Shown: positions 21,487 to 40,514 of the stretch, piece by piece
Layout of the letters: every line of letters begins with the position of its first letter
Position numbering within the stretch: the first letter of the stretch is position 1
Source of the DNA: Streptomyces sp. SID14478
GTDB lineage: Bacteria; Actinomycetota; Actinomycetes; Streptomycetales; Streptomycetaceae
Length of the DNA stretch: 64,000 nucleotides
NCBI RefSeq assembly: GCF_010548525.1
Contig: NZ_JAAGMG010000100.1
Coordinates: forward strand, 53,309-117,308
Reading direction: 5' to 3'
The notes under the pieces: model-generated
Databases searched by the model: none
The model's input: the letters and a program-made list of their open reading frames with translations, nothing else
What the model was told of the DNA's origin: nothing
Made by a program: the position numbers and the translations under genes

Positions 21487-21729
21487 TCAAGCCTTATCCA
21501 CAGCCCACCGAGCGAGTACGTGTTGGGGGTGGTCCTGGGCCAACTCTGACAGCAGCCGAGAGACGTGACGTGCCTCGCGCACGCGGGTGATCGGGCTGCA
21601 GCGATGCGTGATGGTCACCGTGCCGTCGAGATGCTTCTGGTATCCGAAGGGCCGGTCGGGTGGGAGACGGCGAGGTGTTGTCATAGGTGCGGTGCGGGGC
21701 CTCACGGTGGCCAGGTCAGCGGCGCTCAT
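21487..21729 (-). CDS. Small basic unknown protein, end of the minus-strand operon
   Basis: An 80-residue protein whose start overlaps the end of the BFD-like gene by 14 bases, so it belongs to the operon. It is basic in the N-terminal half, contains YQKHLDGTVTITHRCSPITR in the middle and ends in a helix (HVSRLLSELAQDHPQHVLAR). No family is recognised. It ends six bases before the IS remnant, so its 3' end could have been altered. Confidence 0.55.
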   Translation of the reverse strand: MSAADLATVRPRTAPMTTPRRLPPDRPFGYQKHLDGTVTITHRCSPITRVREARHVSRLLSELAQDHPQHVLARWAVDKA

Positions 21730-21919
21730 GGTGGTCCTCCCTTGCTTCCAGGAGTTCTTCCAGGTCGATGATGCAGTCTCCGCATCCGGTGTTCGCGCTG
21801 GTGGTCTCCCGCAGTGTGGGGATGTCGCAGATTCCTGCCGCTATGGCGGAGAGCACCTCACTTTCCCGGACATCGGCGCACAAACAGATGACGGGGTCCT
21901 CACTCGTGTAGCTGGTCAC
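21716..21919 (-). CDS. BFD-like [2Fe-2S]-binding protein
   Basis: A 67-residue protein with the cysteine spacing of the bacterioferritin-associated ferredoxin/BFD domain: VICLCADVRESEVLSAIAAG, then TANTGCGDC-like SANTGCGDCIIDLEELLEA (C-x-C ... C-x2-C). BFD domains carry a [2Fe-2S] cluster and often serve as electron-transfer modules of amine or proline dehydrogenase-type enzymes. The GTG start at 21919 overlaps the aminotransferase stop (GTGA). Its coupling to the aminotransferase suggests a redox partner for a nearby step, but no flavin amine oxidase is in the operon. Confidence 0.75.
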   Translation of the reverse strand: MTSYTSEDPVICLCADVRESEVLSAIAAGICDIPTLRETTSANTGCGDCIIDLEELLEAREDHHERR

Positions 21920-23250
21920 GATGTCACCGTTGCGGCGGCCAGCTGTTGCAGGGCGAGGTCGAGGATGTCGGTCATGACGTCGAGGTCGCTGTCCTCGATG
22001 ACCAGCGGCGGGTGGATGTTGATGACGTTGGGAGCCATGCCGGTGGAAGCGACGATCAGACCCGCCTGGTGGGAGGCAGTGAGGCACAGGCGCCGCAGGG
22101 CGGGTGCGTGGTCGCCGGTGAGAACGAGCCTGGCGGCGCCGCCGAACGCTTGGACGCTGTGCACGAACTGGGGGTGCTGGAGGCGGAGTTGGTCCAGGCG
22201 TTTTCTGATCTTTCCTTCGAGGGAGAGGATGTCGCCTTCGGGGTCGGCCCACTGCGCCCAGCGGTCGAGGACGGCCCGGGTCACTCCCAGGGCGTGCGGC
22301 ATGCCGATGTAGGTGGAGGAATGGCTACCGGGCCGGTATGTCTGTGGTGCTGCCAGCGGTTCACGGGCCCAGATGGCGCTGAGGGCTGCGGCTCCGTTGG
22401 TGAGCGCCTTGCTGGCGACGATGATGTCGGGGGTTACTCCGGAGCGCTGGAATCCCCAGCGCGGGCCGGTCCGGTGCATGCCGGTGAAAATTTCGTCGGC
22501 GATCACAACGGCGCCATTGGAGCGGGCGTGGTCGACCGCAGCCCGCAGGAGGGCGTGGTCGGGTTCGGCCATGCCGCCGACGTTTTGCACGGACTCGAAG
22601 ATGAACGCGCTGACCTTGCGGCCGAAGCCGGCACCGCCCACGCCGGACAGCTCGGAGCCCCATCGGGTCGCCGCGCTGATGCAGCCGGTCGCGCAGCTGG
22701 TCTGGCTGGCGGCGGCGTGGGGGCACCGGCTGCAGTCGGGGCTCGGCAGGCGTACGACCTCCAGGCCCCATGCGGCCAGAAGTTCGCGGTAGCGAGGGCT
22801 GGAGCTGAGCATGCTGGTGACTCCGGACCTGCCGTGGAAGGAGCCTTCGAAGACGACGATGGTCCCTGGGCCGACAGCGCTGAACGCGATGCGTAGCGCT
22901 GTCTCCATGCCTTGCGCCCCGCCCAGGTCGAGCTCAATGCGTCCCGGAGCTCCAGTGGCTTCGCTGAAGAGCCGTTCTAGCCGAGCGAGTACGTCGAGCC
23001 GCAGGTCCGACTCGCAAAAGGAGGGGAGGGCAGGGAGCTGGTGGCAGTGGTCCAGGGCTTCGTGAAGGATCTGGCGGTCGTAGCCCCAGGCCACCATGCC
23101 GTTGGCGGCCTCGGCGTCCAGGTAGCGGCGGCCGTCGGCGGCCTGCAGATAGGAGCCCTCGGCGCTGACGAAGCGTGGCACGTTGTCTGCGCGGTAGATG
23201 AGGTTGCCCGCGCCGACGTGGTCGGGGATTCCAGGGTGGGTGTGGGTCAT
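21916..23250 (-). CDS. Class III PLP-dependent aminotransferase
   Basis: A 444-residue fold-type I class III aminotransferase (ornithine/GABA/glutamate-semialdehyde group). VVIADEIFTGMHRTGPRWGF is the conserved PLP-Asp region and IIVASKALTNG contains the Schiff-base Lys281. The N-terminus has the typical DGRRYLDAEAANGMVAWG. An insertion with four cysteines (CSRCPHAAASQTSCATGC) after residue 170 is unusual and could bind a metal. It overlaps the NDP-kinase-like gene by four bases (ATGA). It probably adds an amino group to an aldehyde or ketone made by the locus, or acts as a mutase. The substrate cannot be read from sequence. Confidence 0.88.
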   Translation of the reverse strand: MTHTHPGIPDHVGAGNLIYRADNVPRFVSAEGSYLQAADGRRYLDAEAANGMVAWGYDRQILHEALDHCHQLPALPSFCESDLRLDVLARLERLFSEATGAPGRIELDLGGAQGMETALRIAFSAVGPGTIVVFEGSFHGRSGVTSMLSSSPRYRELLAAWGLEVVRLPSPDCSRCPHAAASQTSCATGCISAATRWGSELSGVGGAGFGRKVSAFIFESVQNVGGMAEPDHALLRAAVDHARSNGAVVIADEIFTGMHRTGPRWGFQRSGVTPDIIVASKALTNGAAALSAIWAREPLAAPQTYRPGSHSSTYIGMPHALGVTRAVLDRWAQWADPEGDILSLEGKIRKRLDQLRLQHPQFVHSVQAFGGAARLVLTGDHAPALRRLCLTASHQAGLIVASTGMAPNVINIHPPLVIEDSDLDVMTDILDLALQQLAAATVTS

Positions 23251-24215
23251 GCGTGTGCTGCTTTCGGTCGCCAGTCCTCAGAGGTGCCTGTGGAGATGAG
23301 AGGGGTGACACCGGGTTCGTTGCAGTTGATCCAGCCAGTGAGGACAGTGAGTACGTCCCAGCGCGCCCGTCCCTCGGGCAGGGCGCAGCACGCCAGCAAA
23401 CCAAGCCATTCGTCGATCTTGTCTGCTGTCCGGTGCCGTACGGCGCACTCGCCCCATGCGTCGTTCCGCGCGGCCAGCCGGGCCAGACTCTTGCCGATGT
23501 CGAGATCGTGGGCGGGGATCTCGGTCTCGAGTTCCTGGATGAGTTGGGTGAGGTGCTGCTGGCGGTGCTCGCCTGCGTCCGTCCGCTCGTCGAAGAGGCT
23601 CTCGGCACACCAGGACCATCCGGCCTGGTAGGAGAAAAGCTGGAGCTCGCGCACGACGTCTGCTGGGTCGTCTGCGGTGTGCATGAAGTTGAAGAGACCG
23701 TTGACGCGCCCGATGCGCGTCCGCAGGTCGGTCTTGCGCGCAGCTGTTGGCTCGGCGGAGCCCTTGGCTGCGGTGAGGCGGGCACTGGCCGGCAGCCAGC
23801 GCGGCCGAGCGCGGTCTTCCACCAGAACCAGCAGGCTCCGTCCTGATCCCAGTAGATGGTCTACCACTGCGATCCGCTGCTGGGAGGCTGCGTTGAACTG
23901 ATAGCGCCACAGTTCGCGGGTCAGCAGGGGAGTGAAGCCGACAGGAGTGGCGGCGACGGGATGCCAGCCCTCGGAGCGCAGGGTGTCCAGGATGAGGCCG
24001 CAGCGGCGCCCGGCGACGGCGTCCGGCTTGAGGACGACAAAGGTGTGGTCGTACAAGCGGCCGGCGTGCAGCGGCTTTGTGAGAGAGACCAGCCCCTCAC
24101 GCATGTAGGTGTCGTGCCGGTAGGCGACACGTTTGGCGGTGTTCGGTGTCAACGGATCGAGGACGTTGGCCCCGATCGCGCTGCGCGGCTCAGCTGCGCT
24201 CGCTACCAGCTGCAT
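23247..24215 (-). CDS. NDP-kinase-like protein with a novel C-terminal extension
   Basis: A 322-residue protein. Residues 30-195 follow nucleoside diphosphate kinase: HTFVVLKPDAVAGRRCGLIL is the beta1/Kpn-start region and GLFNFMHTADDPADVVREL matches the active-site loop NVIHGSDS, with the catalytic His at position 179. A 60-residue insertion separates the two. The last 125 residues (QHLTQLIQELETEIPAHDLD, ECAVRHRTADKIDEWLGLLA) have no known family. It could phosphorylate an unusual nucleotide or sugar phosphate. The start at 24215 overlaps the upstream gene by 26 bases; a longer frame reading from 24356 is judged antisense noise. Confidence 0.7.
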   Translation of the reverse strand: MQLVASAAEPRSAIGANVLDPLTPNTAKRVAYRHDTYMREGLVSLTKPLHAGRLYDHTFVVLKPDAVAGRRCGLILDTLRSEGWHPVAATPVGFTPLLTRELWRYQFNAASQQRIAVVDHLLGSGRSLLVLVEDRARPRWLPASARLTAAKGSAEPTAARKTDLRTRIGRVNGLFNFMHTADDPADVVRELQLFSYQAGWSWCAESLFDERTDAGEHRQQHLTQLIQELETEIPAHDLDIGKSLARLAARNDAWGECAVRHRTADKIDEWLGLLACCALPEGRARWDVLTVLTGWINCNEPGVTPLISTGTSEDWRPKAAHA

Positions 24216-25035
24216 GATCCAGCTTCTTTCCGCCGAGTGGCATTGCGGTTCCGTCCACGAGGACGATGGGACTTCCGTCGTTGTGTTGGTGCTCGACCAA
24301 GGACAGGCGGCCCGCGGCAAAGGCGCGCACCGTCCACTCCAGACAGGGTCTGTCACTCAACTGTTTCTGCCTGAGTTCGTGGCTCCAGGCATCTGGCGGC
24401 TGTGGGCCCTCGGCTTCGAAGGGCACGGCAGGCCCCTGGCACAGGACCGCTCCGCCGTCCTGACTCGCGTCGACCAGGAAGCACGAGGTGCGGGTCGAGG
24501 CATGGCCCAGTGTGAGGGCGGAGTTGACGGGGTCCTTGCCCACGAGCGCCCGCTGGCCGGCTTGGTCCAAAATGCTGAGGTCGCCTGGATGCTGGTTGAT
24601 CATCCGTCCCCGGTACCGGGTGAGAAGGTCGCCTTCGATCCAGCGGTGGTAGGCCAACACCACGAGGTCGAGCGGTCCGTTGGCCGACTCCCACTCGATC
24701 AGACGAGTGTTCAGATCGTCGTGCCAGGCGCGAGCGCGACGGCGGTAGAGCGAGCGGGTCTGAGCATCACGTGAGTGCGACGCCAGGCCGCAGCGGGTGT
24801 CGAAGTCGCCAGGCCATGCCTCGATGCCGTGGGCTCGGGCGACGGCCAGCGCCGGCGACCGGGTGCCGTGAGAGACAACGAGGCTGACAGCAAAGCTGTC
24901 TGGATCCTGCTGTTGCAGATCGATCAGGGTCTGTAGATTCGCGCCAGTGGCCGACACGAGCACTCCGATGCGCAGCGGGCCGGAGCGTGAGACCCGGGTG
25001 AGAGCACGACCAGCCGACGCGACGTCGCTCAGCAC
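24190..25035 (-). CDS. PurN-like formyltransferase
   Basis: A 281-residue protein of the formyltransferase (PurN/Fmt) fold. IGVLVSATGANLQTLIDLQQ matches the glycinamide ribonucleotide formyltransferase start, MINQHPGDLSILDQ replaces the catalytic INIHPSLLP region with the His kept, and DASQDGGAVLCQGPAVP matches the DxGPII loop. It is longer and more diverged than housekeeping PurN, with an insertion around residues 95-125. Its place in the operon suggests N-formylation of an amine produced by the locus. The GTG start overlaps the NagA-like stop by seven bases. Confidence 0.75.
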   Translation of the reverse strand: MLSDVASAGRALTRVSRSGPLRIGVLVSATGANLQTLIDLQQQDPDSFAVSLVVSHGTRSPALAVARAHGIEAWPGDFDTRCGLASHSRDAQTRSLYRRRARAWHDDLNTRLIEWESANGPLDLVVLAYHRWIEGDLLTRYRGRMINQHPGDLSILDQAGQRALVGKDPVNSALTLGHASTRTSCFLVDASQDGGAVLCQGPAVPFEAEGPQPPDAWSHELRQKQLSDRPCLEWTVRAFAAGRLSLVEHQHNDGSPIVLVDGTAMPLGGKKLDHAAGSERS

Positions 25036-26216
25036 GCGTCAGCCGCCGACTGCAGGGCTCCCCAGCTGGCGTGCGTCGCCTGGAGTACACCCTCAGGAAG
25101 CTCATCTTGCTGGGGCGCGGCGAGCCCGAAGGCACGGTGAGCGGTCCCTGCAACCAGGTCCCAGAGGGCGTCGCCGGTGATGCTCTGCTCGGCCGCATTG
25201 GTCATCTGCTGGGCCAGGGGCTGAGATCCGGCGGCCACGATGCCACCCTCTTGGTACCAGAGCCCGTTCTCTTGGCCGACCGTGAGATCCTGCCCACCCA
25301 GCCGAGCGGAGTCACACCGGTCCGTCATCATCATTGAGTTCTCCAGGCCCATCAGTTGGACCGCGCGGCTGGCGATGGCCAGGTCGACATGCTCACCATC
25401 GAAGTTGATGCACGCGGCGATGCGGCCCGAGGCCGCCTCGTGCATGATCGCGGCCGGCACCGGTCCGGCTATCTGGTCCATGGTGTCCAGAGTCCAACCC
25501 GGCAGGTCGTAGGACCGCAGCGTCGCCTCCCTTGCCTCGCGGGCGCGCGAAGTACGGAACGCGTGACGGATGTTGAGCGGCATGTCATTGAAGAGATGGT
25601 CCGTCACCACCCGCGCGCCCTTGCCGTTCCACTCCGCTGCCCAGGCAAGATCAACGATCTCGGTCACCAACTGCGCGCTGTGGTGCGGATCGCTGCGCGT
25701 GAAGTGACCGAGCGCCGGACGCACACCGTGACCGAGGAGCGTGGGCACGATCCACTCGAAACCCGGGTGCCGGTCGTAGACCTGCCCGAAGAAGTCGGAG
25801 GCGGGCGTGAACGCGTCGGGGGAGAGGACCATGTAGACGAGGCCCAGATCGCCGAGACGGGCCAGACGCTCCCACTCGCTGCGGGTGGGAGCCCAGACGG
25901 TGGATGCAGGGGTGCCGCCGTGGCTGGAGAGCAGTGGCCCCTCAAGGGCGATGCCCACGACATGCGGGATGCGCCCGGCGCGCCGCATCCGGTCGTAACG
26001 CTGCATGAAGCGTTCGAAGTCGCCCAGCCTGTCGTGGTGCAGATAGAGCGTCGGAATACTCAGCACGCCTTCCTGCGTGCATACCTGCTCCAGACGTTCC
26101 AGATCGAGCTGAGAGAACTCCGAGAAGTCCACCCCGGCGAATCCGTGGCAGTGGACCTCTACGGGGAGCAGCGGCTGCGAGTGAGTCTGCTCAGCTGAGT
26201 CGGCCAGGATCTCCAT
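25029..26216 (-). CDS. NagA-like amidohydrolase
   Basis: A 395-residue amidohydrolase-superfamily protein resembling N-acetylglucosamine-6-phosphate deacetylase. VEVHCHGFAGVDFSEF is the HxH metal motif with the Gly-rich turn of NagA, GIALEGPLLSSHGGTPA matches the LEGPF metal-binding Glu region, and PALGHFTRSDPHH and TDHLFNDM fall where NagA has its His ligands. It may remove an acyl or formyl group, or open a cyclic amide, in the pathway. The first gene of the minus operon. ATG 26216 is chosen because GAGGAC lies seven to eight bases upstream; ATGs at 26231 and 26249 are less well placed. Confidence 0.75.
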   Translation of the reverse strand: MEILADSAEQTHSQPLLPVEVHCHGFAGVDFSEFSQLDLERLEQVCTQEGVLSIPTLYLHHDRLGDFERFMQRYDRMRRAGRIPHVVGIALEGPLLSSHGGTPASTVWAPTRSEWERLARLGDLGLVYMVLSPDAFTPASDFFGQVYDRHPGFEWIVPTLLGHGVRPALGHFTRSDPHHSAQLVTEIVDLAWAAEWNGKGARVVTDHLFNDMPLNIRHAFRTSRAREAREATLRSYDLPGWTLDTMDQIAGPVPAAIMHEAASGRIAACINFDGEHVDLAIASRAVQLMGLENSMMMTDRCDSARLGGQDLTVGQENGLWYQEGGIVAAGSQPLAQQMTNAAEQSITGDALWDLVAGTAHRAFGLAAPQQDELPEGVLQATHASWGALQSAADAC

Positions 26217-26279
26217 CAATAAAGTCCTCATCCTCTGACCCGACAGCATAGAGGCACTGCCAGGAATTTCTAGTCGGGG

Positions 26280-26310: not shown

Positions 26311-26743
26311 ATCGTAAGAGGCGGGCTTAGGCGGAAGTGAAGTGCTAGCGATCGGGCATTCGGGACGGGGCGGCAAGTGGTGTCGAATGCGTATCGCGAG
26401 GCGATTTGCGTAACCTCCGTTCGGCGCTTAAGTGAGGCTTGCCTAAGTCGATTCCATGGCGCAAAACGGACGTAACTTGGGCGCAATGTTGGATGTTCTC
26501 CAGTTGCGAATTGATACCTCTGGAGGTTCCTCTGAACTTCGCGAGCCGTCCCACGTAAGCGCAGGTGAGAGGGGTTGTAAGCAGCCCTGACCGTAGATCT
26601 TCCGGGCTTCAAGGCTCAGTTGCGGGCGAAATCCTCCGAGCGGGGCAGCATGGGCGATATTCTCCCGACGGCTGGTCGTGGAGGGCAAGAACCTGCTGCT
26701 CAGATGGGGCGCGATGGGAGAGTGTGACCTATGCCATACAAGG
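26311..26743. promoter_or_regulatory. Divergent intergenic control region
   Basis: About 430 bases between the two divergent biosynthetic operons, visibly richer in A/T than the flanking genes. No coding frame is convincing. It probably binds the regulator of the locus, but I found no clear long palindrome, and no regulator gene lies inside the cluster. Confidence 0.45.
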
Positions 26744-26771
26744 TTGACGCGTTTGCTCGGCGATGCATAAC
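26744..26771 (+). promoter_or_regulatory. Promoter of the plus-strand operon
   Basis: TTGACG (26744-26749), a 16-base spacer and CATAAC (26766-26771) form a good sigma-70-type promoter. It lies downstream of an in-frame ATG at 26731, which argues that translation of the first gene begins later, at the TTG at 26848. Confidence 0.55.
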
Positions 26772-26847
26772 GTCATGGCCGAAAGTTCACCTTGTGTCGA
26801 CGGTTATTCGGCACCGTGTCTCGCGTGTATCTGTTTCGGAGAGTTCC

Positions 26848-27513
26848 TTGAAGCCCGATTTGGTAATCTTCGATAACAGTGGCGTGCTCGTCGACAGCGA
26901 ATCTCTCGGAAACGAACTGCTAGCTGCTATGCTCACCCTCCGAGTGACGCCAACATCTTTCTCTTATGCCGTAGAGAACTATCTTGGAAAGTCGTTCGAG
27001 CACGTCAAGGAAATCGTCCGTCAGCGGAGCGGTAAATCCGTTCCAGACGGATTCCTGGAAGAATTTCATGCGCGGCTCTTCAGTGTTTTCGAGCAGCGGC
27101 TCAAGGCTGTGCCTCACGTCGAAGGTGTACTGGACGAACTCGACGCGCTGCGCGTTCCCTATTGCGTGGCATCCAACGACACGCGCGACCGGGTTGCTGC
27201 CTCCTTGCGGATAGCCGGGCTGCATCGGCGGGTTGCGGGCCGCGTCTTCACCGCCGACATGGTCCGTCGCGGCAAACCGTCTCCGGACGTCTTCCTGCTG
27301 GCTGCCAGGCAGAGCGGCGTGCCGCCCGAGCGGTGCCTCGTCATCGAGGACAGCCCCAGCGGGGTCACCGCCGCACGAGCAGCTGGAATGACCGTGTACG
27401 CGTTCTCGGAGCTCACACCGCAGTCTCGCCTGCAACATGCCCACCTCACGTTCGACAGCATGGCCGAACTACGGTCGCTGCTCACTTCCGCGCTCTCTGG
27501 AGCAACCCGATGA
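26848..27513 (+). CDS. HAD phosphatase/phosphomutase-like protein (beta-PGM type)
   Basis: A 221-residue HAD subfamily IA protein of the beta-phosphoglucomutase/phosphatase kind. Motif I is VIFDNSGVLVDSE, motif II is VASNDT, motif III Lys is in VRRGKPSPDVFLLAA and motif IV is CLVIEDSPSGVTAARAAG. Motif I has Ser where almost all phosphatases and phosphomutases have the general acid/base Asp (DxD), so chemistry may be altered. The TTG start has GGAGAG four bases upstream and follows the predicted promoter. First gene of the plus operon; its stop overlaps the next ATG (ATGA). Confidence 0.8.
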   Translation: MKPDLVIFDNSGVLVDSESLGNELLAAMLTLRVTPTSFSYAVENYLGKSFEHVKEIVRQRSGKSVPDGFLEEFHARLFSVFEQRLKAVPHVEGVLDELDALRVPYCVASNDTRDRVAASLRIAGLHRRVAGRVFTADMVRRGKPSPDVFLLAARQSGVPPERCLVIEDSPSGVTAARAAGMTVYAFSELTPQSRLQHAHLTFDSMAELRSLLTSALSGATR

Positions 27514-28391
27514 CCAGTTGCCAACCCCGCCTCTACGTATGCGATTTGGACGGAACCCTGCTGCGTTCGGACGCCACCTTGAGCAGGTACGCACGCGACG
27601 GCCTCAACGCACTCACCGACGCCGGCGTCCCGCTCACGATCGCCAGTGCCCGCAGCGCTGCGGCGATGCGCTCCCTCCTGGACGGTCTGCGGCTCAACCT
27701 GCCGGTGATCGAACTCAACGGAGCCTTCATCACTGACCTGGCCACGGGCGAGCATCTTGACCACCGGACGCTCATTCCTGGCGCGGTTCGCACGGCGTTG
27801 AACACCCTCAGGGAGCTGGGCATCGAACCCGTGCTCACCAGCTGGGACGGCAGCGAGGACCACGTCGTCCACGGGACCAGTCCCAACCACGGGACCACCT
27901 GGTACATCGACGAAAAGCGCGCCTACGGTGACCCGCGCCTGCGCCGGTCCGCTGACATCGAGGCTTCCGCAGCCACGGAGAAGGTGGCAAACATCGTCTC
28001 CTTCGTCCCCGAGCCGCAGGCCGCAGCTTTGGTCGAGACGCTGACGGCCCTCCTGGGTGACCTGGCAAAAGTCAGCAGCACGGCCAACCTTTACGTCCCT
28101 GGCTGGCACGAAGTGGAGATTGCACACCCCCAGGCCGAGAAGGGCCATGCGATCCAGCGCCTGTGCAGCCTTAGCAAACTGGACGGCGCGCAGCTGACCG
28201 TGTGCGGAGACCACCTCAACGACCTTCCCATGTTCGCTCTCGCGCACCGTCGTGTGGCCCCCTCCAACGCGCATCCTGATGTTCGCTCCGCAGCCACCCA
28301 CATCACCGCCGCCAACGACGAGGACGGCGTCGTCCGATACCTCTTGCAGGACGCGGGGCTGAACAGCTGGGGTGGCATGTGCTCATCGTGA
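27510..28391 (+). CDS. Cof-type HAD phosphatase
   Basis: A 293-residue HAD subfamily IIB protein. Motif I YVCDLDGTLLRSD is intact, motif II is TIASARS, the cap domain follows GAFITDLATGEHLDHRTL, and motif IV is VCGDHLNDLPMFALA. Members dephosphorylate sugar phosphates and small phosphorylated metabolites. It is coupled to the preceding HAD gene by ATGA and overlaps the next gene by 13 bases. With the oxidoreductases and aminotransferase it recalls amino-sugar pathways such as NtdABC (HAD phosphatase, Gfo/Idh/MocA dehydrogenase, aminotransferase), although the aminotransferase class differs. Confidence 0.85.
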   Translation: MTSCQPRLYVCDLDGTLLRSDATLSRYARDGLNALTDAGVPLTIASARSAAAMRSLLDGLRLNLPVIELNGAFITDLATGEHLDHRTLIPGAVRTALNTLRELGIEPVLTSWDGSEDHVVHGTSPNHGTTWYIDEKRAYGDPRLRRSADIEASAATEKVANIVSFVPEPQAAALVETLTALLGDLAKVSSTANLYVPGWHEVEIAHPQAEKGHAIQRLCSLSKLDGAQLTVCGDHLNDLPMFALAHRRVAPSNAHPDVRSAATHITAANDEDGVVRYLLQDAGLNSWGGMCSS

Positions 28392-29074
28392 TCGAAGGCA
28401 TTGACGGCAGCGGAAAGAGCACCGCGGCCGCCATGGTGGCGGAACGTCTCAGCACAGGGCGGGCTCCCTCGTCTCCAACCCCGGGCGGCAAAAAGGCAAT
28501 CGGGCCAACCGACCGGGAGACCGAGGCGCGAGCTGTCCGGCTGCGTGACCTGATCTGGTCATCACCGGAGTCCGCGGGTGACACATTCGGCGCCACCCAC
28601 TGGATCTTGCTCATCGCCTCCTGGTACGCGGGCCTCACCCGGCTGCGGCCAGATCTGCAGCCTTCGCATCCCGGAGTGTGCGTGATGGACGGATGGTTCT
28701 ACCGCAACATCGCAAAGACACTGGTGCGAGAACCCCTGGACCCCCAGTGGGTCGAGTCGCTCTTCGCGCCGGCTCCTGAACCGGACCTCGTTGTTCTCCT
28801 CGACGTCCCGCCCGACGTCGCCTGGGAGCGCCGGGAGACATTCAAGGACACCGAACTAGGCCGCTGGGACGGCTTCAGCGGGCCGGCCCGCGAAGCCTTC
28901 TGTGCCTATCAGTCCGTCATTCGCCAGGAACTGATGCGCATGGCTGACCAACGAAAGTGGCTGGTGCTCTCCCCGGACCGCCACACCACCGCAGAACAGA
29001 CAGCCGCAGCCGTCGTCGAGCACGTCACGAGGGCCGAGCGCACGGCCGCCGGCGCGCAGGAGGAACGAGCATGA
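28379..29074 (+). CDS. Thymidylate-kinase-like P-loop kinase
   Basis: A 231-residue protein. The P-loop IEGIDGSGKSTAAAMVAERL is that of dTMP kinase, and DLVVLLDVPPDVAWERRETF matches the strand and LID start. The usual DRY motif is replaced by VMDGWFYRNIAK, and the TPGGKKAIGPTDRE stretch replaces the EPGGT region, so the substrate is probably not dTMP. It could phosphorylate a modified nucleotide or another small molecule in the pathway. The GTG start lies inside the end of the preceding gene. Confidence 0.8.
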   Translation: MLIVIEGIDGSGKSTAAAMVAERLSTGRAPSSPTPGGKKAIGPTDRETEARAVRLRDLIWSSPESAGDTFGATHWILLIASWYAGLTRLRPDLQPSHPGVCVMDGWFYRNIAKTLVREPLDPQWVESLFAPAPEPDLVVLLDVPPDVAWERRETFKDTELGRWDGFSGPAREAFCAYQSVIRQELMRMADQRKWLVLSPDRHTTAEQTAAAVVEHVTRAERTAAGAQEERA

Positions 29075-29352
29075 GCCCAAGCCGCGACGTCGTCGGCATC
29101 TCAGACCTGGACGTCATGGCGGACGCCCTCGCCAACGTCATCGCCGGAGAGCCCGTGGAGGACGCGCTGCGCGCGTTTCCCGCCGCTGCCTCGCCCCTCG
29201 CCGTGTCGATTCTGCTGCGGGCCATGAACCGGGCCGACCCGCAGGCCGCTGATCGGATACGCGTGTTCTGCCAGGTACCCACAGCCCGATTCGGCGCTCA
29301 CGCCGCCACTTCGAACCCACAGCACCCTGCCGACCAGGAGGAACAACAGTGA
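29071..29352 (+). CDS. Small unknown helical protein
   Basis: A 93-residue protein overlapping the kinase stop (ATGA) and the next start (GTGA). The sequence is helical and Ala-rich (SDLDVMADALANVIAGEPVE, VSILLRAMNRADPQAADRIR) with one cysteine and no known motif. Tight coupling on both sides indicates a real gene, perhaps a small subunit or carrier-like helper. No Ser-based phosphopantetheine site (GxDS) is present. Confidence 0.65.
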   Translation: MSPSRDVVGISDLDVMADALANVIAGEPVEDALRAFPAAASPLAVSILLRAMNRADPQAADRIRVFCQVPTARFGAHAATSNPQHPADQEEQQ

Positions 29353-33620: not shown

Positions 33621-34724
33621 GTGGGACAGTCAGTGATCGACGAGAAGCTTGCGGCAGCACGCGAGCTGGCGAAGGAACTCGCCGATGGTGAAGCAGTCAA
33701 CTCCATCTACATTGCCGGCAGCCTGACCGCGGGATTGGGTAATCCCACCAGTGACGCGGACCTTTTCATCCTGACTGGCGAAATGCAGACACCAGGCGAC
33801 GATGTCACCCAGTTCAACGTCTCAGGGCATCGCGTCGATGTGGAACGCTACAGCCTCCAGGACGCCCGGGACCTCGTCGCTGCGGTCGTCAGCTTCGAAA
33901 CGCGCAGGGACAACCTGACATCCGTGCACGGCCTGCTCAAGAAGCTGGACTTCACGGTGCGACTTCTCAACAGTGAGACGGTCGTCGATTCCGCGGAACT
34001 CGTGGCACTCAAGCAGCAGATCGTCGATAATCTGCCTACGGTGCAGCGAGCCGCCATCAATTACGCGGCCAGTACCATGAACGGGCATCTGGAAGATTTC
34101 CTCGGAGCAGTTGCCGACGAAGACTTCGATACCGCCGCGTTCGTGGGACACCGTCTCGTCGGACAGGCCGGCAAGGCCCTCGCCGCAGCCGCCGGAGACC
34201 TCTATGTCAGCGAGAAGTGGGTTTACAAGCAGCTGCTGCGAAATTCCATTGAGGAGTTCCCGCTGGAAGAGTTCACCGCATATCAGCGCGGCTCGTGGAT
34301 TGAAGGCGGAGCGGCAGCAGCCGACGATCTCCTGTTTTTCGTGCAGACATGCATGGCTGCCAGCCAACTGCTCGGCGCAGCCCGTGTCCCTCTCAATGCG
34401 TGGCCTGCGCGGTTCGGAACGCACAAGGAACAGGATGGCGGCCTGTGGCGCCACCCTTCCTTCAATGTCTTCCAGGTGAACGACGGCGTACTGCTGCACT
34501 GGGAGCTCCACCGCCAGCTCGTGCTCAGGACACCCGCAGCCTTCGTCTGGGCCCTGTGCGACGGGCGGCACCGAGAAGACATCTTCGAAGCGCTCCAGAC
34601 ACTGTCCGAGCACATCCCAGAACTCAGTGGCCTCACCGCAGAGCGGGTCGACCGCATTGTCGCGGCCCTGACCGACAGGGGCCTGGTGAACACGGCACCC
34701 AGTTCCGCCACGGCATGGGTCTGA
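33621..34724 (+). CDS. Nucleotidyltransferase fused to a PqqD-like RiPP recognition element
   Basis: A 367-residue protein. The N-terminal domain has the polymerase-beta-type nucleotidyltransferase motif: IAGSLTAGLGNPTSDADLF, with Gly33-Ser34 and the metal-binding Asp45 and Asp47. Residues about 130-250 form a helical domain (HRLVGQAGKALAAAAGDLYV) like those of kanamycin- or HEPN-type nucleotidyltransferase partners. Residues about 285-360 (NDGVLLHWELHRQLVLRTPA, LTAERVDRIVAALTDRGLV) look like a PqqD/RRE winged helix, which binds RiPP leader peptides. It would move a nucleoside monophosphate onto the bound peptide or a building block. GGAGGAG lies seven bases before the GTG start. Confidence 0.75.
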   Translation: MGQSVIDEKLAAARELAKELADGEAVNSIYIAGSLTAGLGNPTSDADLFILTGEMQTPGDDVTQFNVSGHRVDVERYSLQDARDLVAAVVSFETRRDNLTSVHGLLKKLDFTVRLLNSETVVDSAELVALKQQIVDNLPTVQRAAINYAASTMNGHLEDFLGAVADEDFDTAAFVGHRLVGQAGKALAAAAGDLYVSEKWVYKQLLRNSIEEFPLEEFTAYQRGSWIEGGAAAADDLLFFVQTCMAASQLLGAARVPLNAWPARFGTHKEQDGGLWRHPSFNVFQVNDGVLLHWELHRQLVLRTPAAFVWALCDGRHREDIFEALQTLSEHIPELSGLTAERVDRIVAALTDRGLVNTAPSSATAWV

Positions 34725-34729
34725 GCCCG

Positions 34730-36103
34730 ATGAGAACAGCCGTGAACGAGGGCGGGCCGGACGCTGTGGCGACCCCTGCGGCGGCCGAACGGCTGACGGC
34801 GCTCGCCGATTGGGCACTTGGCCAGCTGGCGCCGCGTGCCGACTACGTCCAGGTGTTTGCTGAACAGACCCTCGAGATACGCACCGAGACTCTCGACGGC
34901 CGGGAGCTGGCCACCCGCCTCGAGCCGCACGAGGGTCTCGGATGCATGGTGCTTCAGAACGACCGCTGGCGCTACCGGCATGTCGCGGCGTCCGAACTCC
35001 CCGCCCTGGCCCATTGGTTGCGCGGACCGGAACAGCGAGCCCAGCCATCCCTTCCGTGCCGCTGGCCAGACCTACCTGAAACAGGCTTCGTGCCCGTTGC
35101 GGCCAAAGACTGGCGCGTCGCCGGAGCTGATGTGCCCTACACCCTCCGGGCGATGGAAGACTTCACGGCGCGAACCATCGCAGTGGCAGACAGCGACGGG
35201 CTCCGCGCATCGTCCAGTTCACAGCGCACTCGCCAGCGTCTCGAAGCGACCGTGTCCGACCACGGCGCCCGTTCACGCGGGCTCAGCCGCTATGTGCTGC
35301 ACGAGACGTCACAGCGTCCATATCCGGGCGCGGGCGCCGTGGCGCGACAGGCGCTCGACAACGCCCTGCACGCCTCCCGAGCCGCGGTAACGGGCCAGTT
35401 CTGCACACCTGTGGTCTTCGGACCCTCCGCCGCAGCCGGATTCCTGCACGAGCTGATCGGCCACGCGCTCGAAGGAGACAACTTCGCACTGGACAGCGTC
35501 TACCTCGCTGCGTTGCGCCGCGGTCCCGCGATCACCGACAAACTGACAATCATCGACGATCCCAGCCTCGCGGACGGACACGGTTCTCGCCCGATCGACG
35601 ACGAAGGCATGCAAACCCGGCCCACCACCCTGCTGGCGCAGGGAAAGATCGTTTCCCCGCTGACCAGCGTGCGGACTTCGCGGCGCAACGGCTATACCCC
35701 GAGCGGGAGCGGCCGGCGCATGGACTACCGGCACCTTGCCCTACCACGCGCGAGTAACACGGTCGTTCTGCCAGGGACCGAAGAACCCACGGAGATGCAT
35801 CGAGACACCCGCGCCGGCGTCCTGATCGTCGACTGCCTCGGCGCCGGCATGATCAATCTGGCCACGGGGGAGTTTTCTTTCGCCGGACTCAACTGCACCT
35901 ACGTGACACCGGGCGGGGAACGGATTCCCGCGCGCGACGTGAGCCTTGTGGGCGACGCACTCGATGCGCTCAGCCGCATCGACGCCATCGGATCCGACAT
36001 GGGCGGAGACAGCAGCACCTGCGGCAAGCAGGGACAGCTGGTAGGCATCGGAGTCTTCTCGCCGTCGATGCGCTTTACCGGATTGAAGTGGACCGCCTCG
36101 TGA
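34730..36103 (+). CDS. TldD-family metalloprotease subunit
   Basis: A 457-residue TldD homologue. The zinc site FLHELIGHALEGDN (His240, Glu241, His245) and the C-terminal CGKQGQ motif (Cys431) are intact, so it should be catalytically active. In microcin B17 and related systems a TldD/TldE heterodimer threads unfolded peptides and removes the leader. Start choice lies between ATG 34730 and ATG 34715, the latter overlapping the preceding stop. The N-terminus DAVATPAAAERLTALADWAL and the segment YVQVFAEQTLEIRTETLDGR are typical of the family. It overlaps the TldE gene by four bases. Confidence 0.9.
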   Translation: MRTAVNEGGPDAVATPAAAERLTALADWALGQLAPRADYVQVFAEQTLEIRTETLDGRELATRLEPHEGLGCMVLQNDRWRYRHVAASELPALAHWLRGPEQRAQPSLPCRWPDLPETGFVPVAAKDWRVAGADVPYTLRAMEDFTARTIAVADSDGLRASSSSQRTRQRLEATVSDHGARSRGLSRYVLHETSQRPYPGAGAVARQALDNALHASRAAVTGQFCTPVVFGPSAAAGFLHELIGHALEGDNFALDSVYLAALRRGPAITDKLTIIDDPSLADGHGSRPIDDEGMQTRPTTLLAQGKIVSPLTSVRTSRRNGYTPSGSGRRMDYRHLALPRASNTVVLPGTEEPTEMHRDTRAGVLIVDCLGAGMINLATGEFSFAGLNCTYVTPGGERIPARDVSLVGDALDALSRIDAIGSDMGGDSSTCGKQGQLVGIGVFSPSMRFTGLKWTAS

Positions 36104-37443
36104 AGACATTGACCGAAAGAGCTTCAGAAGCTCTGGCGCTAGCGCAGCACATCAGCCAGGCGGCAAGGGCTGCGGAGACGACGCACACCTACCTCGACCG
36201 GCAGGCACATCGCCAGCTCACCGTGGACACCACCGGTGCCAAGCGCCTGCGCGTCGACGACGGCGGCTTCGGCGGCTACATACGGCTGGAACAGCGAGGT
36301 CGTGAAGTCCACCTGTCGGCACCCGACATGAACCACGACTCTGCCGAGCGTCTCCTTCACGCCGGCCGTTTTCACTGCGCCCTGACCCCCGCAATAGCCG
36401 CTGAGCGCCGTGACGGCAAAGCCACCGCAGGCGGATGGGAGAACACCAGTAAGCGCCTCGACCTCAGTGCCACGGTCCATGACACCGACGCCATGCTCCG
36501 CGGCCTCGGCGACTCCTTGGGCGCCGATGGAACCGTGGGACAGCTGGCCATCACCGACATCCTCCACGAGGCAGTGTTCGCGGAATCAGGCCGGGACCCG
36601 AGCTGGTCCCGGAACTATGGCGTCGAGGTCGGTGCGACGGCCCACAGCGCCGACACATCCCGCGGTATAACCCTTACCCGCTATGCGAGCACCCTGGATG
36701 CGATCGATCTCGATGGCCTCGGGCGGGAACTGCGCCTACGTCTTGCAGCCACCGCTGGCGCAACCCGTACCTGGGCACCTGCGACGGCAACATTCACCCC
36801 AACCGCCAGCGCCCAGATACTGCGCAATCTCGTGAGCACTCTTCTGCTCAACCCGCTGCCCCCGCACGTAGATATGCACGCCGCCCTCGTCGACGAGGGC
36901 CGTGCCCCCGATGCCTACCACGCTCAGGCATTTGACTGTGAAGGCGTGGCTACAGGCCGCCGGGAACTCGTCTCAGCCACAGGTAAACAGAACCACATCG
37001 CCACACGCCTCGAGCACTCCAGCGAGAACATGCACGAGGCGCCCAACTGCGCGACCGGTCATGCCCGTTGGGACCGCACCAAAAACTTCCCGCAGATGTC
37101 CGCCACCAATGTGTCCCTCACCGCAAACAGCGACGAGAGCGACCTACTCGCCGGCGAACGACACGTGGTAGTCGACGCACGCAGTCTGGGAGTCGAGGAG
37201 AACCGATCCGGTGGCCACATCGCTTTCCGGCTCATGACAGTGCGCGCCGTGGACGGTCGGCCTGTGGAGCCACTGGCCCCCATCACCCTCAACGGCACAG
37301 TCGGTGACTTCCTCGCAGCCATACGCCACGTCGGCCCCACGGTGACCCACTACCCGGGCATGTTCTCCGTGGCCGGCGCCTATCTCGAAATGTACCTGCC
37401 GACCGTCGGCGGAGAAGGAGGAATGTTCGATGACATCCGCTGA
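36100..37443 (+). CDS. TldE/PmbA-family partner subunit
   Basis: A 447-residue TldE (PmbA) homologue without the HExxxH zinc site, as expected for the non-catalytic partner. The C-terminal part holds CEGVATGRRELVSATGKQN, NFPQMSATNVSLTANSDES and the glycine-rich MFSVAGAYLEMYLPTVGGEG close. It is slightly diverged from housekeeping TldE. The GTG start at 36100 overlaps the TldD stop (GTGA) and is preferred to an in-frame GTG four codons upstream. With TldD it most likely matures or degrades the Asn/Ile peptide. The stop lies inside the ABC ATPase gene (14-base overlap). Confidence 0.85.
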   Translation: MKTLTERASEALALAQHISQAARAAETTHTYLDRQAHRQLTVDTTGAKRLRVDDGGFGGYIRLEQRGREVHLSAPDMNHDSAERLLHAGRFHCALTPAIAAERRDGKATAGGWENTSKRLDLSATVHDTDAMLRGLGDSLGADGTVGQLAITDILHEAVFAESGRDPSWSRNYGVEVGATAHSADTSRGITLTRYASTLDAIDLDGLGRELRLRLAATAGATRTWAPATATFTPTASAQILRNLVSTLLLNPLPPHVDMHAALVDEGRAPDAYHAQAFDCEGVATGRRELVSATGKQNHIATRLEHSSENMHEAPNCATGHARWDRTKNFPQMSATNVSLTANSDESDLLAGERHVVVDARSLGVEENRSGGHIAFRLMTVRAVDGRPVEPLAPITLNGTVGDFLAAIRHVGPTVTHYPGMFSVAGAYLEMYLPTVGGEGGMFDDIR

Positions 37444-38377
37444 ACCAGGCTTGCACGTCGCCCAACTGAGCCGAGACTTCACCGCCAAGGACGGTACGAT
37501 CCGCCAGGCCGTGCGCAACGTAGACCTGGCCGTGCGCCCTGGCGAGCTCGTCTCGGTCCTGGGCCCCAATGGCGCCGGCAAAACCACCACGGTCCGCATG
37601 CTGACCGGTCTTCTCCTGCCCACGTCCGGCCGCATTCTCATCGACGGCCACGATGCAGTGCGCAACCGCCGCAAGGCAGCGTCCGCCTGCGGCTTCAGCC
37701 TAGGCGGGGACAGCGGACTCTACCCTCGCCTGACAGCACATCAGAACCTCACGTTCTTCGGTCTGATGTACGGGCTGAGAGGCGCCCGCTTCGAAGCACG
37801 AGCGGCAGAGCTGCTCGAAGCGGTGGATCTCACCTCCCGCGCGGGAGACCTGGTGGGATCCTTCTCCCGGGGAATGAAGCAACGGCTGCACCTGGCGCGT
37901 GCCCTCCTACATGACCCTGGTGTCCTCATCCTCGACGAGCCGTCAGCTGGACTCGACCCGCAGTCCGCTGCCGCCATGCGCGTGCTGGTTGCCGGCCTCG
38001 CCAAGCAGGGACGCAGCATTCTGCTGACGACCCACGACATGCGCGAAGCCGAGGAGCTCAGCGACCGGATCATCTTGATGAAGGACGGGTCCATCAGGAA
38101 CGAGTCGACAGCGACCGATCTGCGTATCGCAGCCGGCGAGCGCATGGGCCACAGAATCGAAGCGGTCTTCACCGACGGAACCATCCCCCCGCAGCTAGCC
38201 GACTGTCCCGGACTGCTGAGTCAGGAAGGGCAGGCCGGCAGCGCAACGCTCCGCGTCGCCGACGGCGCCGCTTCGGTGGCGTGGATTCTCGCTGCTTTCC
38301 CCGGACAGACCACCAGCGTCGCCGTGACACCACCCACGCTGGAAGAAGTCTTCCTTGAGATGGTGAGCACCTCGTGA
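37430..38377 (+). CDS. ABC transporter ATP-binding protein
   Basis: A 315-residue DrrA/NatA-type ATPase. Walker A LGPNGAGKTTTVRML, signature FSRGMKQRLHLARAL, Walker B VLILDEPSAGLDPQSAAA and switch His in LLTTHDMREAEELSD are all present. The C-terminal 90 residues form the usual DUF4162-type extension. It pairs with the two following permease genes to make a heterodimeric exporter, likely for the mature product or for self-protection. The permease gene starts four bases before its stop. Confidence 0.92.
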   Translation: MTSAEPGLHVAQLSRDFTAKDGTIRQAVRNVDLAVRPGELVSVLGPNGAGKTTTVRMLTGLLLPTSGRILIDGHDAVRNRRKAASACGFSLGGDSGLYPRLTAHQNLTFFGLMYGLRGARFEARAAELLEAVDLTSRAGDLVGSFSRGMKQRLHLARALLHDPGVLILDEPSAGLDPQSAAAMRVLVAGLAKQGRSILLTTHDMREAEELSDRIILMKDGSIRNESTATDLRIAAGERMGHRIEAVFTDGTIPPQLADCPGLLSQEGQAGSATLRVADGAASVAWILAAFPGQTTSVAVTPPTLEEVFLEMVSTS

Positions 38378-39177
38378 GCATTTCACTCGCTCCAGCACGC
38401 GACCCGAAGGGAACGCTGCGGTCAGTGACCCTGCCCACGTTCGCCCGGGCTCTACGCGATCAGCTGCGCATGCACGCCACCAGCCCCATGGCGATTTTCT
38501 CTACCCTCGCTATGCCCTGCGTCTTCGCATTCATCGTGAACCGTAACGCGACGGGCTCCGAGCACGTCGCGGGCATGAACAGCGGGCTCGCAGTAGGCAC
38601 TGCAGGAGTCGGGATGCTTGACTCCATCATCGTGCTCGTCGTGGTCAGCATGATGGGCGAGAAGAAGTGGAAAACGCTGTACGCCGCGTTGGGCAGCCCG
38701 GGCAGTCTCGTTCCGGTGGTCCTGGGACGCCTTGCGGGCACTGCACTGCAGTCGCTCACCGCCCTGCCAGGCACCTTGGTCATACTCGCCGTGATGTGGG
38801 GAATCGGTGAAGCCTTCGACTGGGTTCGATGGATCGTGGGCGGTGTTCTCCTGGCGGCATCCACCGCTTCACTGGTGGGCCTGCTTGGGTTTGCAGTTCT
38901 TCGGTACCCCTACTCCGCTGGCATGACCAATGGTCTCACCGGTCTGGTCATGGCTCTGAGCGCTCTCATCGTTCCGCAGTCTGCACTGCCGGGCCCCGTC
39001 GCCAAGCTAGCGATGCTGCTGCCGCAATCCCATGCCATGGCATGGGTGCGAGGCGGCAATTCCATCCAGGTTCTCTGGGCCGTCCTTCTCACCGCGCTCT
39101 ACAGCGGGCTGGTCGTGCTCAGCATCAAGAGGCTGGAGAAGACCGCCCGCGACCAAGCACTGCCCCTGGAGATGTGA
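38374..39177 (+). CDS. ABC-2-type permease subunit 1
   Basis: A 267-residue membrane protein with six predicted helices, including SPMAIFSTLAMPCVFAFIVN, MLDSIIVLVVVSMMGEKKWK and a C-terminal ALYSGLVVLSIK. The conserved region after helix 2 (KTLYAALGSPGSLVPVVLGR) matches ABC-2 exporters, as does the LVMALSALIVPQSALPGPV turn. The GTG start overlaps the ATPase stop (GTGA). Confidence 0.85.
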   Translation: MSISLAPARDPKGTLRSVTLPTFARALRDQLRMHATSPMAIFSTLAMPCVFAFIVNRNATGSEHVAGMNSGLAVGTAGVGMLDSIIVLVVVSMMGEKKWKTLYAALGSPGSLVPVVLGRLAGTALQSLTALPGTLVILAVMWGIGEAFDWVRWIVGGVLLAASTASLVGLLGFAVLRYPYSAGMTNGLTGLVMALSALIVPQSALPGPVAKLAMLLPQSHAMAWVRGGNSIQVLWAVLLTALYSGLVVLSIKRLEKTARDQALPLEM

Positions 39178-39182
39178 AGGCG

Positions 39183-39974
39183 ATGACTGCACGATCACGC
39201 TCACCTCTTGCCGAAGCCGCTACCGTCCACATGCGCGGCGCACTTCTGTCCTACCGGGCGCTTTTCACCTGGCTCAACCCCCTGGGGTACGTCAGCTCAC
39301 GCATCGTCCGCCCCATCGGCATGGCCATCGCGTTTACCTCCCTCTCGTCGTACTACGGGGAAGGCGGCGGCAGAATGCTCGTCGGAGCAAGCCTTCTGGC
39401 AGGAGCGGGAGCGGTGCTCTACGGCATGGCACTCTCCGTCGGGAACGAGCGCCTCTTCGGCACGCTGGATACCTGGCTTGCCTCGCCGCAGCACAAGCTC
39501 GGAGCCATAGTTCAGCGCGCCGTCCCCCATGTTGCCGACGGGTTCATCGGCGGGCTCTGCACCTACTTGATCTGCTGCCTCCTGTACGGGACCATGCCGA
39601 TCCCCTTGTTGCTGTTCAGCGTGCTGTTGGTTGTCGCCGTGGTCAGCTCCGTGGGCTTCAGCCTGTCGCTCGCAGCTGTCGCCCTGATCATCGAAGATGT
39701 CTTTGTCGGCCCCAACGCAGCTGAACTCGCCTTGATGATCTTCTCTGGCACGCTCGTTCCGCAGGGACGCCTGCCGGCAGGACTCCGAGAGGTCTCAGAG
39801 ATCTTTCCCCTCACCCGCGTCATGAGCATCGTCGACGATCAACTGGCACGCAGAGCCTGGTCATCGGGCACGATGCTTGCCGAGATAGGCGTTGCGGCAG
39901 TGTGGTTCGCCGTCAGTAGCGCGCTGGTATCTCTTGCGGTCCGTCGAGCCTCTGCCCGTACCCAGGTCGATTAA
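39183..39974 (+). CDS. ABC-2-type permease subunit 2
   Basis: A 263-residue membrane protein with six helices. ERLFGTLDTWLASPQHKLGA is the ABC-2 coupling segment, and LMIFSGTLVPQGRLPAGLRE with FPLTRVMSIVDDQLARR is the late loop of drug/polyketide exporters. It should form the second half of the pore with subunit 1. Start could also be the GTG at 39174, which overlaps the preceding stop; ATG 39183 has GGAG at a better distance. Confidence 0.85.
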   Translation: MTARSRSPLAEAATVHMRGALLSYRALFTWLNPLGYVSSRIVRPIGMAIAFTSLSSYYGEGGGRMLVGASLLAGAGAVLYGMALSVGNERLFGTLDTWLASPQHKLGAIVQRAVPHVADGFIGGLCTYLICCLLYGTMPIPLLLFSVLLVVAVVSSVGFSLSLAAVALIIEDVFVGPNAAELALMIFSGTLVPQGRLPAGLREVSEIFPLTRVMSIVDDQLARRAWSSGTMLAEIGVAAVWFAVSSALVSLAVRRASARTQVD

Positions 39975-40004
39975 CGATACGACGCCAGTTCGCGAGAGGA
40001 CCCG

Positions 40005-40514
40005 ATGAGCCAAGAGATCGAACGCCGCTTCCTGATCCAGTACCCCTGGGACCAGAAGCACTTCACCGCTTCCATTGCGATTCGGCAGGGTTATCTCCGG
40101 CTCGGAGATTCTGATTCCCGTGAAGTACGAGTGCGCGAAAAAGAACGAAACTTCTGGCTGACTGTCAAAGACGGTAGCGGACTCTCACGATTTGAGGTAG
40201 AGCAGCCAATCTCGCCGGAAATGTTCGAGGCGCTGTGGCGCTTGACTATCGGGCGCAGAATAGAAAAGACGCGGTTCATCCTGTCCGACGCGGAGCGCAA
40301 GATCGAGATCGATGTGTTCCGGGGAGCACTCCACGGCCTCGTGCTCGCCGAGGTCGAATTCGGGACATTGGAAGAGGCCCACGCCTTCATCGCACTCCCG
40401 TGGTTCGGTCCAGAAGTCACCGAGGACATCAGATACCAGAACCGCAACCTTGCCGCACAGACAAGCCCGCCACAGGGGCCACTGAGCGTTTTCAGCGTTG
40501 CCTCTCCAGGGTGA
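40005..40514 (+). CDS. CYTH-domain protein with IS-derived C-terminal tail
   Basis: A 169-residue CYTH protein: [41 protein letters not shown] and [20 protein letters not shown] supply the charged tunnel residues of the triphosphate tunnel enzymes. CYTH enzymes hydrolyse inorganic or organic triphosphates or act as adenylate cyclases; here it could use a triphosphate formed by the kinases. The last ten residues ([10 protein letters not shown]) are encoded by the end of an inserted IS element (from 40484), so the original C-terminus is lost. The core fold looks complete. GAGAGGA precedes the ATG. Confidence 0.8.

What the first reader, a model, noticed from the sequence alone, without database searches (positions are those of the whole stretch)
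21487..40514. A previously unfamiliar RiPP-like biosynthetic locus built around an (Asn-Asn-Ile)8 peptide
Seen: two divergent, tightly overlapping operons encode a 46-residue peptide ending in eight perfect Asn-Asn-Ile units, a PqqD-like domain fused to a nucleotidyltransferase, TldD/TldE, an ABC exporter, and a large set of small-molecule enzymes (class III aminotransferase, PurN-like, NagA-like, NDPK-like and dTMP-kinase-like proteins, two HADs, Gfo/Idh/MocA, SDR, PPOX, two cupins, CYTH). Known: RRE, TldD/E and ABC genes next to a short acidic-leader peptide are hallmarks of RiPP loci. Inferred: a new class in which an amino-sugar- or nucleotide-like moiety is built and attached to, or templated by, an Asn/Ile core. 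I know no described family with this combination.
Basis: partly seen in the sequence, partly recalled or inferred. Interest (0 to 1): 0.96.

Follow-up and report, generated by a model that had tools for sequence, protein, structure and literature searches.

The report
Triplet-repeat peptide with nucleotidyltransferase
This gene cluster encodes a small peptide ending in eight identical Asn-Asn-Ile units beside a predicted nucleotidyltransferase that carries a predicted peptide-gripping domain, and all ten related clusters compared keep such a three-residue repeat, so it likely makes a new class of peptide natural product in which every third residue would be chemically decorated.

Summary
Window 33420-33560 encodes a 46-residue peptide: acidic leader, ENI, then eight perfect, DNA-identical NNI units; the pattern occurs nowhere else in the genome held. 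It lies directly upstream of a nucleotidyltransferase-PqqD fusion, TldD/TldE and an ABC exporter.

Ten of ten clusters whose DNA I held with a close relative of that fusion carry a short peptide with leader motif D-I-[V/L]-E-F and a core of X-[Asn/Asp]-[Val/Ile/Ala] triplets. In the nine others, adjacent units differ by 139 synonymous versus 26 non-synonymous codon changes: the triplet itself is under selection. The enzyme's predicted fold is kanamycin-nucleotidyltransferase-like plus RRE-like. Asn- and Asp-core enzymes fall in separate clades that differ at an otherwise conserved acidic residue.

The 12-gene small-molecule cassette is not specific to the repeat peptide: the three other genomes found with all of it pair it with a 22-residue peptide, a discrete RRE and a discrete nucleotidyltransferase.

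Best reading: an apparently unreported RiPP class in which an RRE-guided nucleotidyltransferase likely modifies the Asn/Asp of each triplet with a phosphoryl-linked group, supplied by swappable donor cassettes. Acceptor atom, donor and product are inferred.

The parts
33420..33476 (+). leader of the precursor peptide (residues 1-19), with motif DEDIVEF
   Evidence: V, E and DIVEF invariant in the 8 Asn-core precursors; D-I-[VL]-E-F in all 10
33477..33560 (+). core of the precursor: ENI then eight NNI units, ending at the C-terminus, plus stop codon
33621..34430 (+). nucleotidyltransferase domain of the fusion (residues about 1-270), GS...DxD motif (D45, D47) and D73 kept in all 10 repeat clusters
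34431..34724 (+). PqqD/RRE-like C-terminal domain of the same protein (residues 271-367)
34730..36103 (+). TldD-like metalloprotease with HExxxH
36088..37443 (+). TldE-like partner, no HExxxH
37430..38377 (+). ABC exporter ATPase
   Evidence: 60-72% identical to its counterpart in 8 of the 9 other repeat clusters, none found in Cpin
38374..39177 (+). ABC-2 type permease 1
39183..39974 (+). ABC-2 type permease 2 (start approximate)
40005..40514 (+). CYTH / triphosphate-tunnel-type protein
   Evidence: profile to 3typ E 4.6e-46 and 2fbl; no Pfam match
26731..27513 (+). HAD phosphatase-like protein with unusual DNS motif (start perhaps near 26818)
27510..28391 (+). Cof-type HAD
28379..29074 (+). 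thymidylate-kinase-like P-loop kinase
29349..30053 (+). thiol-dioxygenase-like cupin 1 (H88, H90, H165 invariant in 17; start may lie upstream)
30119..30895 (+). cupin 2, paralogue of cupin 1
30896..31933 (+). GFO/IDH/MocA oxidoreductase; nearest NCBIfam model inositol 2-dehydrogenase, below cut-off
31936..32691 (+). short-chain dehydrogenase
32688..33257 (+). PPOX-type flavoprotein
25029..26249 (-). NagA-like amidohydrolase (weak profile match)
24190..25035 (-). PurN-like formyltransferase
23247..24215 (-). nucleoside-diphosphate-kinase-like protein with the His in LFNFxH kept (start revised)
21916..23250 (-). class III aminotransferase
21716..21919 (-).
   Evidence: tblastn E 9.9e-09; translation
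21487..21729 (-). 80-aa protein of unknown family at the left edge; membership unsure
   Evidence: no Pfam match

Best explanation
This is a RiPP-type cluster whose 46-residue precursor ends in eight Asn-Asn-Ile units and is predicted to be bound through its acidic leader by the RRE-like domain of a predicted nucleotidyltransferase, which likely transfers a nucleotide-type (phosphoryl-linked) group to the side chain of the Asn of each triplet. Shown: the peptide, its repeat, the gene order, the predicted folds, the catalytic motifs, the coupling of repeat peptide and NTase-RRE in ten of ten clusters, and selection for the amino-acid triplet. Inferred: (1) leader binding by the RRE. (2) Catalysis on the core: Asn, or Asp in two clusters, is the only functional side chain shared by all ten cores, and the NTase is the only likely core-modifying family of the window found in all ten. 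(3) Donor supply: the NDK-like, thymidylate-kinase-like and CYTH proteins would handle mono-, di- and triphosphates and charge an unusual monophosphate, built by the aminotransferase, formyltransferase, NagA-like, GFO, SDR and cupin enzymes, to the triphosphate that the NTase uses; clusters without a cassette would use a common NTP. (4) TldD/TldE would remove the leader, perhaps cutting the core into tripeptides, and the ABC transporter would export the product.
Confidence: 0.5

Rival explanations
1. Multi-core precursor: the repeat array is cut by the cluster's own TldD/TldE into many copies of a decorated tripeptide (Asn-Asn-Ile here, Ala-Asn-Val, Gly-Asn-Ile, Val-Asp-Val elsewhere), which is the exported product. 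It shares the NTase step with the best explanation and differs in the final shape.
For: [quoted passage not shown] the Asn/Asp is the second-last residue in all ten precursors, so each array ends with a whole unit; unit number varies freely, 5 to 19 by the script's count.
Against: Precursor length modulo 3 is not constant (1,2,2,2,2,1,2,2,0,0), so there is no fixed phase from Met1; modifications (heterocycles) stop TldD/E in microcin B17 (same passage).
Confidence: 0.25
2. Scaffold: the repeat peptide is a multi-site carrier; a small molecule is assembled on the Asn/Asp side chains and released by TldD/E, the NagA-like or an esterase-like hydrolase, and the peptide is reused, as in pearlins.
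For: Rich small-molecule enzymes and several hydrolases; pearlin clusters encode TldD/E-like or M50 proteases and reuse the scaffold peptide (PMC10885120 passage); the same cassette occurs with an unrelated 22-aa peptide.
Against: No PEARL/LanB-like family among the 19 window proteins scanned with Pfam; Svir, Cpin and Ndes show little or no cassette; an ABC exporter is kept in 9 of 10.
Confidence: 0.15
3. The NTase only activates the side-chain carbonyl with AMP, and the mature residue is a nitrile, amidine or substituted amide without phosphorus.
For: Works for both Asn and Asp cores with one chemistry; nitrile formation on a RiPP by an asparagine-synthetase-like enzyme is reported (PMC13060819, abstract and first of seven parts).
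Against: Would not need NDK-like, kinase and CYTH proteins; no example with a KNTase-fold enzyme known to me.
Confidence: 0.15
4. The short ORF is replication slippage or a structural/regulatory peptide unrelated to the enzymes.
For: In the window itself the eight NNI units are DNA-identical, as slippage would give.
Against: 10 of 10 clusters keep leader and triplet; 139 synonymous vs 26 non-synonymous changes in the other nine; ribosome site and constant position.
Confidence: 0.03

Closest known systems
Microcin C-type peptide-nucleotides (MccA/MccB)
   Same: Ribosomal peptide, nucleotide attached at Asn, TldD/E can mature the product (PMC9239234, PMC10885120 passages).
   Different: MccB is ThiF-like and acts on one C-terminal Asn; here a KNTase-fold enzyme with a C-terminal RRE-like domain faces 5-19 triplets ending in Val/Ile/Ala.
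Lasso peptide pseudomycoidin with PsmN (annotated nucleotidyltransferase)
   Same: A nucleotidyltransferase-family protein tailoring a RiPP.
   Different: PsmN puts hexoses on a phosphorylated C-terminal Ser (PMC9266682 passage); no lasso cyclase or leader peptidase family here, and no Ser in the repeat units.
TvgA/TvgB poly-cyclopropylglycine peptides
   Same: Short repeat core (TVGG) modified at repeats (PMC9062424 passages).
   Different: Radical SAM chemistry on Val; no radical SAM family among the window proteins scanned.
Pearlins / ammosamide cluster
   Same: TldD/E-like proteins inside a RiPP cluster (PMC10885120 passage) with small-molecule enzymes.
   Different: No PEARL family found; the window's precursor is repetitive.
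Daptide clusters with nucleotidyltransferases
   Same: Some daptide clusters list nucleotidyltransferases (PMC10036551 passages); the window aminotransferase also hits the daptide aminotransferase model far below cut-off.
   Different: Nucleotidyltransferase is an ancillary gene there; here an RRE fusion is the only likely core-modifying family shared by all ten clusters.

Membership tests
RiPP (general) | genetically encoded precursor next to its modifying enzyme | tested here: met
   short repeat ORF directly upstream of the NTase-RRE in 10 of 10 clusters; that the NTase modifies it is inferred
RiPP (general) | RRE or other leader-binding element | tested here: inconclusive
RiPP (general) | mature product derived from the precursor | not testable with these tools
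   needs expression and mass spectrometry
KNTase/ANT-like nucleotidyltransferase | fold and GS...DxD plus third acid | tested here: met
KNTase/ANT-like nucleotidyltransferase | nucleotidyl transfer activity | not testable with these tools
   no assay
Microcin C | MccB ThiF-like enzyme | tested here: not met
   no ThiF family among the 19 window proteins scanned with Pfam
Microcin C | precursor with C-terminal Asn | tested here: not met
   the ten precursors end in Ile, Val or Ala
Lasso peptide | asparagine-synthetase-like cyclase and transglutaminase-like peptidase | tested here: not met
   neither family among the 19 window proteins scanned
Pearlin | PEARL (LanB-like) enzyme | tested here: not met
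   no such family among the 19 window proteins scanned
TldD/TldE (M103) | HExxxH in TldD, absent from TldE | tested here: met
   window; TldD motif in 9 of 9 checked; Svir's TldE has an HELYVH somewhere
Nucleoside diphosphate kinase | NDK domain with catalytic His | tested here: met
   PF00334 7.8e-07; H226 of the long reading invariant in 8 of 8; that it is the catalytic His is recalled

The most novel reading that the evidence does not exclude
A gene-templated nucleopeptide: an RRE-guided, KNTase-fold enzyme hangs a nucleotide or nucleotide-like phosphate on the Asn (phosphoramidate) or Asp of every third residue, giving a ribosomally encoded rail of 5 to 19 identical nucleotide groups, with interchangeable donor cassettes supplying different, non-canonical nucleotides. 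It would be a RiPP class, and a peptide-nucleic polymer, with no described counterpart known to me.
Probability: 0.28. Interest if true: 0.96.

Novelty: new variant of a known kind. Interest (0 to 1): 0.83.

Why it matters
If right, it adds to RiPP biosynthesis a class-defining enzyme (an RRE fused to a KNTase-fold nucleotidyltransferase) and a class-defining core (X-[Asn/Asp]-[Val/Ile/Ala] triplets), seen here in four named actinobacterial genera (Streptomyces, Kitasatospora, Catenulispora, Nonomuraea). It makes a concrete question testable: can a nucleotidyltransferase modify an Asn side chain repeatedly along a peptide, and does the Asn/Asp switch in the core follow a change in the enzyme? 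The cassette swap between two peptide frameworks also gives a handle on a group of uncharacterised clusters that combine NDK-like, nucleotidyltransferase and RRE genes.

Tried and rejected
Slippage or artefact: rejected by the codon test and the ten-cluster conservation. Microcin C, lasso and pearlin membership: defining families not among the 19 window proteins scanned with Pfam (the twentieth item was the misframed peptide, and permease 2 and the BFD were not in those scans). Fixed tripeptide phase from Met1: not seen. Mobility of the NTase: no phage hit and one 25.5% plasmid hit. A search for shared short ORFs in distant NTase clades gave noise, and its output was cut; I claim nothing on their precursors except one candidate. 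NagA-like and cupin profiles found no PDB sequence relatives; cupin 1 was then placed by fold. ANT/KNTase entries did not appear in the sequence-profile search of solved structures, only by fold.

Literature: ten searches of open PMC papers, judged by listings (titles, starts of abstracts). None listed a paper on the RRE-nucleotidyltransferase/TldDE/triplet-repeat combination. 'nucleotidyl' has 0 occurrences in the main texts of PMC7470986 and PMC12710340; the latter reports 1,158 Pfam domains retrieved, whose lists are in supplements that I could not search, so the fusion may be listed there. Subscription papers were not searched. Papers were seen as passages only, except PMC13060819 (abstract and first of seven parts).

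Mistakes of mine: read the peptide from 33421, one base out of frame; corrected. My gene caller is crude and starts are approximate; outputs were cut, and the counts for one search's loci rest.
Full report
What is there. The 46-residue peptide is encoded at 33420-33560 (+), with AGGAGG six bases before the ATG. It reads as an acidic leader with DEDIVEF, then ENI and eight NNI, and stops at the end of a unit. The array is a perfect 9-bp repeat, its codon pattern occurs only there in the 9.07-Mb genome held, and it far exceeds shuffled sequence. Downstream lie, in order, a nucleotidyltransferase-PqqD fusion, TldD with HExxxH, TldE without it, an ABC ATPase with two permeases, and a CYTH-type protein. 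Upstream on the same strand lie HAD, HAD, thymidylate-kinase-like, two cupins, GFO/IDH/MocA, SDR and PPOX. The genus is Streptomyces by inference: G341, 'same genus', has a contig of the length of the S. seoulensis record.

The peptide belongs to a family. A search of 5.8 billion proteins found 37 proteins, the window's own included, related to the fusion; I held DNA for only some. From six named loci and three genome surveys (11 of 392 genus, 14 of 394 family and 3 of 394 class genomes matched, the window's own genome counted in each) I assembled ten distinct close clusters: the window, S. seoulensis, S. abyssomicinicus, S. viridochromogenes, Kitasatospora xanthocidica, Catenulispora pinisilvae, Nonomuraea deserti and the unnamed G365, G414 and G313. 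Their NTases are 38-59% identical to the window's. All ten have a short ORF within about 140 nt upstream of the NTase-RRE, with D-I-[VL]-E-F in the leader and a triplet core: NNI, ANV, ANI/GNI, VNV, VDA or [V/I]DV, 5 to 19 units by the script's count (first atypical units included). In 16 loci with distant NTases (about 27-35% identity) the same periodicity scan found no such peptide beside the NTase. A profile search with eight precursors gave six proteins, five of which show leader plus X-N-[V/I] triplets; one of these ends in what looks like a translated sequencing adapter.

The amino-acid triplet is selected. Between adjacent units the nine clusters other than the window show 139 synonymous and 26 non-synonymous codon changes, some of the latter at the first, atypical unit. 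Random single changes in GCC-AAC-GTC would be about 26% synonymous (hand arithmetic). In the window the eight NNI units are DNA-identical, so there the array looks recently expanded and the test is silent.

The donor cassette is swappable. A profile of the NDK-like protein matched 42 of 392 genus genomes, including all four that carry a close NTase-RRE. Of the NDK-like loci read, those of G111, G319 and G078 hold all 12 small-molecule genes of the window (AT3, NDK, PurN, NagA, HAD1, HAD2, TMK, both cupins, GFO, SDR, PPOX) at 53-86% identity, higher than in the repeat clusters for the genes shared. There the genes after PPOX are an AurF-like oxygenase, a discrete nucleotidyltransferase, a discrete PqqD/RRE, a 22-residue peptide (for example MKQYNKPQAKKIDFTRVMMVNR), an asparagine-synthase-like protein and an ABC exporter. 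A pattern scan found such a 22-residue peptide in 9 of the 12 loci in which I had seen an AsnB-like gene. The window thus looks like a chimera (inferred): the cassette of one lineage joined to the peptide/NTase-RRE/TldDE module of another at the same junction. What stays constant is cassette + peptide + RRE + nucleotidyltransferase.

NDK-like and nucleotidyltransferase genes go together. Of 43 further loci fetched around NDK-like matches, 25 hold an NTase gene within the 20 kb, against about 9 NTase places in about 176 Mb of 20 relatives, which would predict about 0.04 in 43 loci. Caveats: 18 of the 25 look like one cluster type (three of them were read; one carries a ScbA-type gene by NCBIfam); three of the 25 contributed sequences to my NTase profile; the 20 relatives include other families; and the two searches differ in sensitivity. 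Eighteen of the 43 show no NTase match in the 20 kb; three of these have one in the next flank, and one has an NTP_transf_5 protein instead. In the window, kinase-, NDK- and CYTH-type proteins all point to phosphate-ester and triphosphate handling (inferred from families).

Comparison. Microcin C is the closest functional analogue (nucleotide on Asn, TldD/E), but its MccB is ThiF-like. PsmN is the closest precedent for a nucleotidyltransferase-family RiPP enzyme, yet it adds hexoses to a phosphorylated Ser. TvgA is the closest repeat core. None fits by its defining enzyme. Ten searches of open papers, judged by their listings, showed no report of this combination; supplements of the two RRE surveys were not searchable here.

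Noticed in passing
L081:2763-2831(+), L082:17667-17735(-), L083:2792-2860(+), L077:18171-18239(-), L080:14374-14442(+), L071:17451-17519(+); also L087, L088, L120: A second uncharacterised peptide family: exactly 22 residues, M[KR]xYxKPxxKx..., found by a pattern scan in 9 of 12 loci with an AsnB-like gene and just upstream of it in the six listed with coordinates; discrete RRE and nucleotidyltransferase and often an AurF-like oxygenase nearby.
   Followed up: partly
L090-L096, L098-L108: Eighteen Streptomyces loci pair an NDK-like gene with a nucleotidyltransferase gene two or three genes away; in the three read an SDR-like and a ScbA/AfsA-like gene sit beside them (one confirmed by NCBIfam).
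   Followed up: partly
window 26731-27513; L073, L074, L075: The first HAD of the extended cassette has FDNSGVLVDSE in the window and three sister clusters where clade-A clusters have FDCDG: the second Asp of the motif is Ser, conserved, suggesting altered chemistry.
   Followed up: no
L060:17943-18095(-); L034, L035, L036, L038, L060: A distant NTase-RRE clade sits with what looks by eye like a B12-type radical SAM protein and a roughly 740-aa protein; L060 has a 50-aa acidic candidate precursor.
   Followed up: no
L042:18114-18323(+), L079:11896-12108(+): A 69-70-aa peptide ending [G/A]SCETGAQ next to an about 400-aa protein (80% identical between the two loci), near NDK-like genes: possibly another RiPP family.
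   Followed up: no
window 40492-43261: Transposase-like genes by eye (IS5-type look at 40492-41283, IS110-type look at 42032-43261) abut the right end of the cluster, fitting a mobile or chimeric origin.
   Followed up: no
L074:12212-15733(+): QueD-, QueE-, FolE- and IMPDH-like genes (by eye), a 7-deazapurine route, lie beside the cassette in G319.
   Followed up: no
P0038: A precursor hit ends in EIGRASCRERV, which looks like translated sequencing adapter rather than peptide.
   Followed up: no
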